From the NCBI GenBank assembly GCA_007694935.1, contig REES01000087.1, forward strand, positions 1 to 64,000: a DNA stretch of 64,000 bases. Reading direction: 5' to 3'. Source of the DNA: Rhodospirillales bacterium (GTDB lineage Bacteria; Pseudomonadota; Alphaproteobacteria; Rhodospirillales; Defluviicoccaceae). Position 1 is the stretch's first letter. Each line of letters starts with the position of its first letter. The notes under the pieces are model-generated. The model was given only the letters and a program-made list of their open reading frames with translations, was not told the origin of the DNA and ran no database searches. The position numbers and the translations under genes are program-made. Of the stretch, positions 27,148 through 30,450 are shown one piece after another.

Positions 27148-27318
27148 CAAGGCCAGAATCGTGATCGGTGAAAACGAACGCTCCCCGGGGCCGCGTTCGA
27201 TCCCGACATGGCGCCGCCGCCCTCCTGTTCCTCGCGAGCCTGATCGCGCTGCCGCGGATGGCGCGGTAGAACAGGGCGTGAGCGGCCGTGGTGCGAGCAT
27301 TGCCCCCCGGGTCGACGC
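27148..27318. other. Spacer between ispE and the DUF4365 cassette
   Basis: These 171 bases include a 33-codon frame (GTG at 27168, stop 27267-27269) encoding a basic N terminus plus a hydrophobic stretch (AALLFLASLIAL), like the start of an exported protein. It has no clear ribosome site and may be a remnant or chance. Confidence 0.3.
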
Positions 27319-28476
27319 TCAATCGTTGTCTTCGTACGCGGTGACCTCGAACTGCCGCGGGTTTTGCAGGCGAAGACCGCGTCCCTCCTGGGCTAGTTCC
27401 CCGGTGCATCTGACCTTGAGCCGATCGTCATGCGCCTTGACGGCTTTGGTGTAGTCATCCGGCACCAGCTCCATAGTGATGGGCCGCATGGGACCGTCGA
27501 CGGACGCCTGGACCGTCACCTCGCCGGCCTTCGCAGCCGGTCCGCGATTCAGTCGCGTCACGAACCCTTCGACCTCGAAATCCTCCAGAGGCGTCCTTTC
27601 CCTGAAATGGCGGGCAGCTTCCCGGATGATCGGGATGCTGTCGCTACTCAACGCCACACGTACGGATGCCTTCGGGTCAACCGGCCTCGAGCGTGACCAC
27701 GAGACACGAACGTCGATCGGAGCACCGGAACCGACCTCGGACAGGCCGACCACGGCTTCGCACAGGTTCGCGGAAACACCCCGCTCTACCGCATCGGCGA
27801 AGGGTTGCATGCTGCCGTCGAGGGCTGCGGCGCGCGCTGCTTCTCCGAGGGCGGTAAGGCCCCCCATGAGCGTTCGGATCACTCGCCGCTCGTAAGGTTG
27901 CACCGGTTCCAAGCCCGGAAGCTCTCCTTGGGCTGCTTTCAGTTCCGGAGAGACCGGGGACAGGATCGTCAACACATAGCTGCCGTGCTCCGTCTGACCC
28001 AGGCGAACTTGCCGCAGGTAGTCCATTGCCTGCTGCGGCTTTCTCTTGGCGAAGGATGGTCGCTTTTCGAGCGTCGCGCATGCTGCCGACAGGATCATGT
28101 CGCGGCTGCGTTCGACGAGAGTGACCGCAAGCTCCAGCGGCAGGGAACCATTGTCCGCGCCATGGCCGGTTGCACGGACCCGCACGAGATCCGCTGTCGT
28201 CGTCATGAGGTCACGCAGGACCTCGAGTTCGGACCGGCCCTCCACCTGCGCCACGGTCTGCAGCAGTTCACCCATTCGCAGAGCATAGTCGGCCAAATCT
28301 TGCCTGAGCGGCAGTGTGACGTCGAACTCTTCCCCGTCAGGGAGCTCCACCAGCCACAGGCTTCCCTTCCCGTTGATGTCGGCTTTCCGCCGCCAGCCCT
28401 TGGCTCGCAGATAGGCCGCCAACTCCAACGGCTTCAGCGCGTCAAGGACGGCCGCATCGCGAATCTGCACGTTCAT
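27319..28476 (-). CDS. Conserved protein of unknown function, partner of the DUF4365 protein
   Basis: This 385-residue soluble protein has no signal peptide, membrane segment or named domain that I can assign. Conserved-looking blocks are LELAAYLRAKGWRRK at the N terminus, SELEVLRDLM, PQQAMDYLRQVRLGQTEHGSYVLTILSP in the middle, and ERGVSANLCEAVVGL. A beta-rich C-terminal third ends with CTGELAQEGRGLRLQNP. I recall similar proteins adjacent to DUF4365 genes in actinobacteria and myxobacteria, which suggests a conserved pair. Its ATG overlaps the DUF4365 stop (ATGA). Base composition is visibly less GC-rich than that of neighbouring genes, hinting at transfer. Confidence 0.78.
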   Translation of the reverse strand: MNVQIRDAAVLDALKPLELAAYLRAKGWRRKADINGKGSLWLVELPDGEEFDVTLPLRQDLADYALRMGELLQTVAQVEGRSELEVLRDLMTTTADLVRVRATGHGADNGSLPLELAVTLVERSRDMILSAACATLEKRPSFAKRKPQQAMDYLRQVRLGQTEHGSYVLTILSPVSPELKAAQGELPGLEPVQPYERRVIRTLMGGLTALGEAARAAALDGSMQPFADAVERGVSANLCEAVVGLSEVGSGAPIDVRVSWSRSRPVDPKASVRVALSSDSIPIIREAARHFRERTPLEDFEVEGFVTRLNRGPAAKAGEVTVQASVDGPMRPITMELVPDDYTKAVKAHDDRLKVRCTGELAQEGRGLRLQNPRQFEVTAYEDND

Positions 28477-29000
28477 CGGGCACCTGCCGCGTCGATCTTG
28501 GCCATCATCTTCCGGACGGCCTCCGGTGTCAGCAGATTTGTTCGAGGAATGGTGACGGTCACGGTTGTTGCGTTGTCGCGCGCCGGTTTGCCCGCCAACG
28601 AAACCCAGTAGGCGCACCGTTTCAAGACGACTTGCTCGGCCGTCAGCGTGAGCCAATCATCGGGGCTCGTCGGCAGTATGACGAGAACGAGGATACGCGG
28701 GGTGAGAAGTTCGGTAAGCGTCAGGTCGGTATAGTTTTTTACCTTGAGACGATAGCGGATCGGTTCGTTGCCGTCAGCCACTGGCTCGGCAGTCGTTTTC
28801 ATCTGAATATCCAGTTTTGGCCGCCGCGGCAGTTTGCAAGAAAGCGTCCAATCAATACTGTCGTTATCCGTCCTGGGTTTGGCGACGGCGCAACCGGCAA
28901 CGCTGGCGACTGCTTGGAGAAAAACATCGCCGAACGCTTCCTGGCGCGCTGTTGTCGCCATCCCGAGCGCGCCTTGATATGGATCGTCTTGGTTCGTCAT
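28473..29000 (-). CDS. DUF4365 domain-containing protein, nuclease-like
   Basis: The 175-residue protein matches the DUF4365 pattern. E21 lies in ARQEAFGDVF, acidic residues occur at D45, D47 and D50 (RTDNDSIDWTL), and LDIQMKTT (63-70) provides Q66-x-K68. Further on come LTPRILVLVILPTSPDDWL and AYWVSLAG. The E...D...(D/Q)xK arrangement resembles PD-(D/E)XK nucleases; DUF4365 proteins are often reported in defence-type gene neighbourhoods. Catalysis is inferred, not shown. The ATG at 29000 is chosen because upstream in-frame sequence is not family-like. It is the first gene of a two-gene operon. Confidence 0.8.
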   Translation of the reverse strand: MTNQDDPYQGALGMATTARQEAFGDVFLQAVASVAGCAVAKPRTDNDSIDWTLSCKLPRRPKLDIQMKTTAEPVADGNEPIRYRLKVKNYTDLTLTELLTPRILVLVILPTSPDDWLTLTAEQVVLKRCAYWVSLAGKPARDNATTVTVTIPRTNLLTPEAVRKMMAKIDAAGAR

Positions 29001-29301
29001 TCTCTCATTGGTTTGCAGCGCTGGTTCGATGGCACGTGTCGATGCGCCGCCTGGGCTGAAGCAGTAGACCGTCCGCCGCCGCTGGTCGGCTGCATGAGGA
29101 TTATGGCTTCGATTGCGATGACGCGACAAGGCGGGCGTGAGCGTTCTGCATCACCCAAAGAACCGGGGTGGCCTGTCTCTCGGCTCAACGGCGCGCCAAT
29201 AAGGTGGACATCCTTCAACGTCGGTATCGCGCCACGTCATGATGATGGGCTTCCTTGCGGCGGAACACCCCCCGGTTCGCCGCCGGCTCCCCACTGCGGG
29301 G
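29001..29301. other. Leader region of the DUF4365 cassette
   Basis: This 301-base spacer follows the modC stop. A possible minus-strand promoter has -10 CATAAT (29100-29105) and -35 TTGTCG (29124-29129), 18 bases apart, giving a leader of about 95 bases. No transposase, integrase or repeat bounding the cassette was recognised. Confidence 0.35.
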
Positions 29302-30450
29302 CTACGGCGCCGCCGCACCCCGGTTCCCGTCATGGCGAACGGCGTCGGGCGTGCTGTCGCCGTCGAGCAGGGCCACACCCTTGATCTGGGCATGGACCAG
29401 AAGGCCCAGATCCAGTGCCAGGGTCTCCCACGACTTGCGGGACACCCGCGCGAGCAGCGCTGCCCCGGTGCCGTCCCGCCCCAGCCGCAAGATCACCGTG
29501 AGGCGATAGCGGTCGATGTCTTCGACGGCGGCAACGCGGGCGGGCAGGGCGTTGAGGATGGTGGTCTGCTCCGGACGCTTCAGGGTCAGGCTCACGTCCG
29601 AGGCCAGCACCCGCACCCGCCGCTTCGTTCCCGGCGGCCCCAGGTGGCCCGGCACCTGCAAGGTGGCCCCGTCCACATCCAGGCTGGCGAGACCGTAGCC
29701 GGCATCCTGCGCCATCACCACGCCATCCAGCACGGCGGCGGCGTCCGGCATCCGGACGAACGGCAACGCCGGATCGGACACCAGGACGGGAAGCGGCCCG
29801 GTCGCGCGCACCCGTCCTTCCTGCATCAGCACCAGGGTGTCGGCCAAGCGTTCCACCTCGGACAGGTCATGGCTCACGTAGAACACCGGGATCGCCAGGG
29901 ACCCGTGCAGGCGTTCCAGGTAGGGCAGGATGTCGTCCTTGCTGAACCGGTCGAGGGCGGCCAGCGGCTCGTCCATCAGCAGCAGCCGCGGCTGGCTCAG
30001 GAGTGCCCTGCCGATGGCCACGCGCTGGCGTTCCCCGCCCGACAGCACCGCGGTGGGGCGGTCGAGCAGGCGGGCGATGCCCAGGAGGTCGACCACGTCG
30101 TCGAAGGTGATCGCCGGCTTGTCGATGCCGGACCGGCGCAAGCCGTAACGCAGGTTGCCGACCACCGAGAGATGGGGGAACAGGCTCGCTTCCTGGAACA
30201 CGTACCCGACAGGACGGCGATGCGGCCTGATGAAACGACCCCCGTCCTGCCAGACCGTTCCGTCAACCGACAGTCGACCGTCGGCGAGTCGCAGCAGCCC
30301 GGCCATGCATCGCAGCACCGTGGTCTTGCCGCAGCCGGACGGTCCGAACAGGGCGGTCACACCGTTTGTCGGCACGTTGAACGTGGCATCGAGAAGAAAG
30401 CTGCCGAGCCGGCCGCGGAACCGCGCCTCAACGCCCGCCGCGCCGCTCAC
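29302..30450 (-). CDS. modC: Molybdate ABC transporter ATP-binding protein
   Basis: The 382-residue ATPase has Walker [10 protein letters not shown], signature [15 protein letters not shown] and Walker [13 protein letters not shown] in the first 230 residues. A C-terminal molybdate-binding (MOP/TOBE) domain follows around residues 290-355 ([19 protein letters not shown]). It powers molybdate uptake through ModB. Translation starts at GTG within a GTGA overlap with the modB stop. It is the last gene of the modEABC operon, and a short GC hairpin follows its stop without a T run. Confidence 0.95.

What the first reader, a model, noticed from the sequence alone, without database searches (positions are those of the whole stretch)
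27319..29000. Two-gene DUF4365 cassette as a candidate undescribed defence-type system
Two genes overlap by ATGA and sit alone on the minus strand between ispE and modC. The first is DUF4365 with a PD-(D/E)XK-like E21...D50...Q66-x-K68 pattern; the second, 385 residues, has no domain I can name. The GC content looks visibly lower than in both flanks, suggesting transfer. A predicted nuclease translationally coupled to a conserved unknown partner looks like an effector plus sensor or regulator. I recall the same pair in distant bacteria. Function is inference.
Basis: partly seen in the sequence, partly recalled or inferred. Interest (0 to 1): 0.78.

Follow-up and report, generated by a model that had tools for sequence, protein, structure and literature searches.

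The report
Two-gene nuclease defence cassette, PDC-M02
Two overlapping bacterial genes encode a likely DNA-cutting enzyme and a partner that may be its nucleic-acid sensor; the pair is already listed as an untested candidate anti-virus system, and the evidence here makes that reading firmer and suggests how it could work.

Summary
Gene A (28473-29000, minus, 175 aa) is DUF4365; gene B (27319-28476, minus, 385 aa) overlaps it by ATGA. Only 3 of 1247 stretches of that length are as low in G+C, and all 3 overlap the cassette. It is not undescribed: both genes match PADLOC candidate PDC-M02 (A 3e-55, B 3e-140). I found no paper naming PDC-M02 in the held library. What this adds: (1) A's predicted fold is closest to the DREN nuclease domain of SPARDA, whose catalytic D/Q/K correspond to invariant D50/Q66/K68. 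(2) B (pLDDT 94.6) ends in an OB fold; its N-terminal domain is weakly HicA-like; three Nostoc plasmids keep only these two ends. (3) In 80 related loci, 62 have an intact A upstream, 58 with a 4-nt overlap in B's frame. (4) 18 of 80 loci hold type I restriction genes against 0 of 20 control regions; 11 pairs sit between hsdS and an hsdR-like ORF. (5) Nodularia phages encode B's N-terminal domain alone, a possible inhibitor. Best reading: B senses an infection-linked nucleic acid (or the restriction enzyme's state) and assembles A into an active, indiscriminate nuclease. Defence role about 0.85; this mechanism about 0.5.

The parts
28473..29000 (-). Gene A: 175-aa DUF4365 / PDC-M02A, predicted nuclease (DREN-like PD-(D/E)XK fold)
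   Evidence: Pfam 9.9e-19; PADLOC PDC-M02A 3.1e-55; AlphaFold pLDDT 91.7; SPARDA DREN domain best solved match, Z 13.6, rmsd 3.0, 136 residues
28851..28853 (-). Codon of D50, predicted metal ligand
   Evidence: D in 67 of 67 A sequences; by motif order corresponds to NbaSPARDA D41 (PMC12205087)
28797..28805 (-). Codons of Q66-M67-K68, predicted catalytic Q-x-K
   Evidence: Q66 and K68 in 67 of 67 A sequences; by motif correspond to NbaSPARDA Q60/K62 and TmuRE Q62/K64
28473..28476 (-). ATGA overlap: stop of A and start of B
   Evidence: 4-nt overlap in B's frame in 58 of 62 intact pairs among 80 related loci
27319..28476 (-). Gene B: 385-aa PDC-M02B partner
   Evidence: PADLOC PDC-M02B 3.2e-140; AlphaFold pLDDT 94.6, pTM 0.89
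28195..28476 (-). B N-terminal domain (residues 1-94): helices, three strands, helices
   Evidence: weak profile match to HicA, probability 69% over 35 columns; occurs alone in Nodularia phages
27595..28194 (-). B middle region (residues 95-294), no known fold identified
   Evidence: absent from the 178-180-aa B of three Nostoc plasmids
27322..27594 (-). B C-terminal OB fold (residues 295-385)
   Evidence: VIA-align Z 7.5-9.0 to SSB, RPA, PriB and RecO structures, top row SilF 10.2; no Foldseek match under E 0.001 in the PDB, best 1.8e-3
29100..29129 (-). Promoter-like site upstream of A (TTGTCG-18-CATAAT, 9 of 12)
   Evidence: consensus scan only; no evidence of function

Best explanation
This is a PDC-M02 cassette: a two-gene, horizontally moving anti-phage system. 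Shown by computation: A has the fold and an invariant D/Q/K site like the SPARDA DREN nuclease; B carries a C-terminal OB fold and a small alpha/beta N-terminal domain; the two genes are a coupled pair across phyla. Inferred: A alone is a poorly active monomer, as isolated DREN is; B binds it and holds it silent; in infection B meets a trigger (most likely single-stranded or otherwise unusual nucleic acid through its OB fold, or a change in a type I restriction enzyme where the pair sits in that operon), and B's assembly brings several A units together, switching on indiscriminate DNA and perhaps RNA cutting that stops the infected cell.
For: PADLOC match of both genes. A: SPARDA DREN fills the top six rows, Z 11.5-13.6; Hjc resolvases reach 11.1, so the best DREN rows stand clear but the lowest are tied with Hjc. 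D45, D50, Q66, K68 in 67 of 67 sequences against catalytic D41/Q60/K62 in NbaSPARDA, whose isolated DREN is monomeric with undetectable activity and is activated by tetramerisation (passages of PMC12205087); Q62/K64 mutated as the active site in TmuRE (passages of PMC10810196). B: OB fold. Coupling: 62 of 80 loci with intact A, 58 of 62 with the 4-nt overlap. Dependence: 9 of 9 strong PDC-M02A matches in 398 genomes lie beside B, while 2 of the 10 genomes with B have no A match. Setting: 18 of 80 loci with HsdS or HsdM against 0 of 20 control regions; plasmids and temperate phages.
Against: No activity test exists here. Two other PADLOC PDC candidates (PDC-M63AB, PDC-S04) were tested in their native host and showed no defence (passages of PMC12409345), so the label alone is weak evidence. 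OB folds bind many ligands, and most OB rows sit at Z 7.5-8, a range the tool warns is common. No A-B complex could be modelled. Next to the window's pair are housekeeping-type genes, and 62 of 80 relatives show no HsdS or HsdM hit in the stretch held. In SPARDA the nuclease is fused to APAZ and paired with Argonaute; nothing here shows that B oligomerises. The A-never-without-B count depends on the PDC-M02A model, and one of the two B-without-A genomes (G260) has a broken B.
Confidence: 0.5

Rival explanations
1. A PrrC-like guard of type I restriction: Hsd proteins hold the A-B complex silent, and phage anti-restriction factors release the nuclease; free-standing copies such as this one act on an Hsd enzyme encoded elsewhere or have become independent.
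For: 11 of 80 loci have the pair (or, in L094 and L101, B alone) between hsdS and a long DEAH-containing ORF read as hsdR. PrrC is linked to a type Ic system, silenced by it and released by T4 Stp (passages of PMC2610378; listing). The order hsdM-hsdS-prrC-hsdR is recalled.
Against: 62 of 80 loci had no HsdS or HsdM hit in the stretch held; the hsdS-hsdR gap is a seat for other defence genes such as darTG2 (passages of PMC12255303), so position alone proves little. I did not look for hsd genes elsewhere in the window's genome.
Confidence: 0.2
2. A toxin-antitoxin module: A is a toxic nuclease, B only its neutraliser, with a main benefit of maintaining plasmids and islands.
For: PDC-M02A was not found without B (9 of 9 strong matches) whereas B occurs without intact A; presence on plasmids (29 of 72,556 records).
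Against: B is twice the size of A, conserved along its length, with an OB fold; the effector gene comes first; part of the relatives sit in restriction operons. A system that needs B for activation predicts the same orphan pattern if A alone is harmless but useless.
Confidence: 0.17
3. A Holliday-junction-resolvase-like or other DNA-repair enzyme with an SSB-like partner, not a defence system.
For: Archaeal Hjc is the next fold after DREN, Z up to 11.1, tied with the lowest DREN rows; B's OB fold resembles SSB, PriB and RecO.
Against: Sporadic distribution (10 of 398 phylum genomes; 2 of 11 family genomes), signs of transfer, restriction genes nearby in 18 of 80 loci.
Confidence: 0.08

Closest known systems
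PADLOC candidate PDC-M02 (PDC-M02A + PDC-M02B)
   Same: Both genes and their adjacency; the 25 model hits of A are PDC-M02A, and the 25 shown of B's 41 hits are PDC-M02B.
   Different: Nothing that I tested differs; this is one more member. No paper naming PDC-M02 was found in the held library.
SPARDA (short Argonaute with DREN/DUF4365-APAZ)
   Same: Nuclease fold and D/Q/K site of A.
   Different: A is a free 175-aa protein; the SPARDA chains matched are 387-423 aa and carry APAZ; the partner here has no PIWI match in Pfam.
PrrC-EcoprrI anticodon nuclease in a type I restriction operon
   Same: A nuclease gene linked to hsd genes in a share of relatives.
   Different: PrrC is an anticodon nuclease invariably linked to type Ic systems (passages of PMC2610378); A is DUF4365, and 62 of 80 relatives, like the window's pair, show no HsdS or HsdM nearby.
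HicA-type small alpha/beta domain
   Same: Order helix-three strands-helix in B residues 16-79; 69% profile probability over 35 columns.
   Different: No conserved histidine in B residues 1-94; the HicA histidine is recalled; no HicB-like partner was sought.

Membership tests
PDC-M02 (PADLOC-DB 2.0.0) | First gene matches PDC-M02A models | tested here: met
   3.1e-55
PDC-M02 (PADLOC-DB 2.0.0) | Second gene matches PDC-M02B models | tested here: met
   3.2e-140, residues 1-382
PDC-M02 (PADLOC-DB 2.0.0) | A and B adjacent on one strand (the PADLOC rule itself was not seen) | tested here: met
   4-nt overlap
PDC-M02 (PADLOC-DB 2.0.0) | Protects against phage | not testable with these tools
   needs plating assays
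SPARDA | DREN nuclease fold with D, Q, K | tested here: met
SPARDA | APAZ domain fused to the nuclease | tested here: not met
   A is 175 aa and the DREN match spans residues 12-174; APAZ in B was not tested directly
SPARDA | Short Argonaute (MID-PIWI) partner | tested here: not met
   no PIWI match in B at E up to 1; flanking genes are ispE and modC by eye
HicA toxin (for B residues 1-94) | Profile similarity | tested here: inconclusive
   probability 69% over 35 columns, one-against-one comparison; no HicA among the 25 of 28 Pfam families shown for 81 B proteins
HicA toxin (for B residues 1-94) | Conserved catalytic histidine (recalled) | tested here: not met
   no histidine among the conserved columns of residues 1-94
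Druantia type III (DruH) | B shares a module with DruH | tested here: inconclusive
   one PADLOC DruH model matched the short Nostoc B at 6.7e-6; B profiles gave no match below E 0.06 in eight ORFs from DruH-like loci, and hhalign probability at most 2.3% (output partly cut)

The most novel reading that the evidence does not exclude
Nodularia phages carry a stand-alone copy of B's N-terminal domain (101 aa, with no A and no rest of B) among their nucleotide-metabolism genes; it is an anti-PDC-M02 decoy that occupies the surface by which B docks A or binds its trigger. That would be an inhibitor of a PDC-M02 system and would mark the N-terminal domain as the system's switch.
Probability: 0.25. 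Interest if true: 0.72.

Novelty: new member of a known kind. Interest (0 to 1): 0.5.

Why it matters
PDC-M02 is so far a name in a detection database, as far as the held library shows. Tying its nuclease to the DREN effector of SPARDA gives a ready catalytic-mutant test and suggests DREN working with a second, Argonaute-free controller. Defining B's parts (N-terminal domain, a middle that Nostoc plasmid copies lack, OB fold) and a phage-encoded copy of one part gives a short list of constructs that could settle how the system senses infection. The repeated seat between hsdS and hsdR makes a link with restriction directly testable.

Tried and rejected
Undescribed system: rejected. HlyD_3 for B: E 0.14, below cut-off. 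Druantia link: one model hit, not reproduced with ORFs from DruH-like loci. Toxin B subunits and SilF in the OB list: common-fold matches, given no weight. The 22-nt imperfect repeats at 27210 and 29306 (86%) look like GC-rich chance and were not taken as insertion scars. Low-G+C dips at about 5.5-6.5 kb and 46-47 kb are ordinary genes by eye. Solved-structure sequence searches with A, B and both profiles: no match. tblastn of the phage domain against plasmids: none. First single-protein scan of viral contigs with B: none. PADLOC neighbour tally: 159 model families matched near B against 44 in controls, 148 of 160 and 148 of 164 ORFs scanned; it is blunt because one gene hits many models, and controls also hit some (a type II methyltransferase, mad3 in 3 members). 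The HsdS/HsdM count was preferred. In the Pfam tallies (25 of 120 and 25 of 131 families shown) many listed neighbours are housekeeping or metabolic genes.

Limits on counts: the 80 loci are the best 80 of 233, so nearer relatives are favoured, and several repeat genomes already seen through the genome search. The HsdS/HsdM queries were three ORFs from L094, L101 and L028, so those three of 18 count by construction; without them 15 of 77 against 0 of 20 (one-sided Fisher 0.023), and without L094 the matched set is 5 of 19 against 0 of 20 (0.020). Control regions were 16 kb, B loci up to 21 kb. HsdR was called only by length and motifs. Gene picks near B were longest ORFs weighted by codon-position G+C.

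Full report
1. What is there. On the minus strand, gene A (28473-29000, 175 aa) and gene B (27319-28476, 385 aa) share the bases ATGA. A is DUF4365 (E 9.9e-19); B has no Pfam family above cut-off. Its G+C is 0.620 against 0.683 for the window; 3 of 1247 equally long stretches are as low, and all 3 overlap the cassette. Third-position G+C is 0.65 and 0.74 against 0.86-0.88 in ispE, the ETF-QO-like gene and modC.

2. Signs of transfer. In the 7 regions read around ispE in same-family relatives, the ETF-QO-like gene and ispE lie a few kb apart as in the window, with the TPR gene between them matched in 4 (E 1e-15). ispE was found in 11 of 11 family genomes. In the one-contig genome G010, ispE and the best modC match are about 111 kb apart. 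PDC-M02B occurs in 2 of 11 family genomes. In the congener G001 the pair is on another contig, and the 4.1 kb beside its ispE has no match to A or B at E 1e-15. Its B is 39% identical, while the ETF-QO-like protein is 91% and ispE 69%. The closest B found, 57%, is in a proteobacterial MAG. Separate acquisitions are the simplest reading.

3. It is a catalogued candidate. PADLOC-DB assigns A to PDC-M02A (3.1e-55; all 25 hits) and B to PDC-M02B (3.2e-140; all 25 shown of 41). Papers call PADLOC's PDC names unpublished candidates of Payne et al. (PMC11811056, passages; PMC12988326, passages); the 2024 preprint was seen only as a reference entry. Two other PDC systems tested in a native host showed no defence (PMC12409345, passages). 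Searches for PDC-M02 and its spellings found no paper in the held open library. DUF4365 is named in 10 held papers (listing), of which I read passages of two. So 'undescribed' is wrong; 'untested' holds as far as that library shows.

4. The pair recurs as a unit. A scan of genome contigs with a B alignment found 233 relatives; the best 80 were kept, in several phyla by record title (Planctomycetota, Acidobacteriota, Verrucomicrobiota, Chloroflexota and others). Of these 80, A is intact in 62, in pieces in 5, partial in 4, not found in 6 and cut by a contig end in 3. Of the 62, 58 have a 4-nt overlap opening B's frame (50 ATGA, 7 GTGA, 1 TTGA) and 4 do not. In 398 genomes of the phylum, B was found in 10 and A in 9. 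One of the nine (G408) is a weak match (8.8e-4) inside a 671-aa frame and was set aside; the other nine A matches, in eight genomes, all lie beside B. G200 and G260 have B without an A match; B of G260 is broken. These counts depend on PADLOC's models, so DUF4365 proteins of other kinds are not counted. B also occurs in 29 of 72,556 plasmid records (13 of them Nostoc, Tolypothrix or Calothrix), in two Mycobacterium abscessus prophage records, in one of which I read the pair as genes 1 and 2, in temperate Leptospira phage LE1 and in 6 viral contigs, 4 of them with A.

5. Gene A is a nuclease by predicted fold and site. AlphaFold gave pLDDT 91.7. The nearest solved structures are SPARDA complexes (Foldseek E down to 1.9e-7; VIA-align Z 13.6, rmsd 3.0, 136 residues, aligned to their first 150 residues). 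Archaeal Hjc follows at up to 11.1, tied with the lowest SPARDA rows (11.5). In 67 of 67 A proteins D45, D50, Q66 and K68 are kept; E21 is E in 52. In NbaSPARDA the catalytic residues are D41, Q60 and K62, isolated DREN is a monomer without detectable activity, and tetramerisation switches it on (PMC12205087, passages). In TmuRE the pair is Q62/K64 (PMC10810196, passages). The correspondence is by motif and fold; the residues were not superposed.

6. Gene B has three parts. AlphaFold gave pLDDT 94.6 and pTM 0.89. Residues 295-384 form an OB fold (Z 7.5-9.0 to SSB, RPA, PriB and RecO, top row SilF at 10.2), though Foldseek alone gave no PDB match under 0.001 (best 1.8e-3). Two of 81 B proteins reach Pfam's OB-fold nucleic-acid-binding family weakly (0.023). 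The profile of residues 1-94 matches HicA at 69% over 35 columns, while the middle and OB parts score under 1%. This is a lead only: it was a one-against-one comparison, and no histidine is conserved there. In three Nostoc plasmids B is 178-180 aa and matches only the N-terminal domain and the OB fold, so the middle is dispensable there. Among viral predictions, an LE1 protein matches along most of B (E 2e-23, TM 0.59).

7. A phage carries one part of B. The 101-aa gp166 of Nodularia phage kac65v162 matches the B N-terminal domain only (E 1.9e-11 in the phage's own frames; PDC-M02B 2.9e-10). A 101-aa protein of that phage, presumably the same, matches B's predicted structure over 83 columns at 1.3 A. 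It is in 9 records of 6 Nodularia phages at 95-100% identity, among dUTPase, thymidylate synthase and dTMP kinase genes. The phage has no A match (best E 0.84). A decoy or inhibitor is one reading; a domain reused for something else is another. Whether Nodularia carries PDC-M02 was not tested.

8. Defence setting. With three HsdS/HsdM query ORFs, 18 of 80 B loci hold one or both, against 0 of 20 control regions from 20 of the same genomes (one-sided Fisher 0.012); for the 20 loci matched to those controls, 6 of 20 against 0 of 20 (0.010). Three of the 18 loci supplied the queries; without them 15 of 77 (0.023), and 5 of 19 in the matched set (0.020). In 11 of 80 (L034, L050, L052, L067, L071, L084, L091, L094, L099, L101, L102) A and B, or B alone in L094 and L101, lie between hsdS and a long DEAH-containing ORF read as hsdR. 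That gap also houses darTG2 elsewhere (PMC12255303, passages), and PrrC is linked to a type Ic system (PMC2610378, passages). Against this, 62 of 80 loci show no HsdS or HsdM hit, and many neighbours are ordinary genes, as in the window. On one Entomospira plasmid the pair lies near three DUF262 genes and an Abi gene.

9. How it most likely works. The nuclease site and the coupled partner rest on computation; the rest is inference. The DREN precedent says the domain needs assembly to cut. B, with a fold common among nucleic-acid binders and strict coupling to A, is the natural candidate to hold, sense and assemble. The orphan pattern (A not seen without B, B tolerated without A) fits either an activator-scaffold or an antitoxin; expressing A alone would decide. 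The restriction setting leaves room for a PrrC-like guard function in embedded copies.

10. Verdict. A well-preserved PDC-M02 cassette. The new elements are the DREN link, the anatomy of B with a minimal form, the phage-borne N-terminal domain, and the counted restriction-operon setting.

Noticed in passing
L202:12830-13135 (Nodularia phage kac65v162, record 112830-113135): Stand-alone homologue of the B N-terminal domain in 9 records of 6 Nodularia phages; possible PDC-M02 inhibitor or reused domain.
   Followed up: partly
L023:6001-6537, L178:6001-6543, L179:6001-6543: Nostoc plasmid B of 178-180 aa keeps only the N-terminal domain and OB fold and stays coupled to DUF4365.
   Followed up: yes
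L094:9800-11116 and L101:9845-11179: B without A, lying between hsdS and a long DEAH-containing hsdR-like ORF.
   Followed up: partly
BFVD A0A8S5QA00 (Siphoviridae ctoic9): A DUF6575 phage protein matches B's predicted structure at E 1.6e-7 but with low TM-score, 0.32; a possible distant family.
   Followed up: no
window 27210-27231 and 29306-29327: 22-nt imperfect direct repeats (86%) on either side of the cassette; probably chance in GC-rich sequence.
   Followed up: no
L077:14789-15142: A second, partial B (profile positions 134-211) about 4 kb from another pair.
   Followed up: no
PADLOC model PDLC00044 (DruH3) against the Nostoc B (P0003): Weak hit 6.7e-6 over residues 45-148; not reproduced with ORFs from DruH-like loci.
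   Followed up: partly
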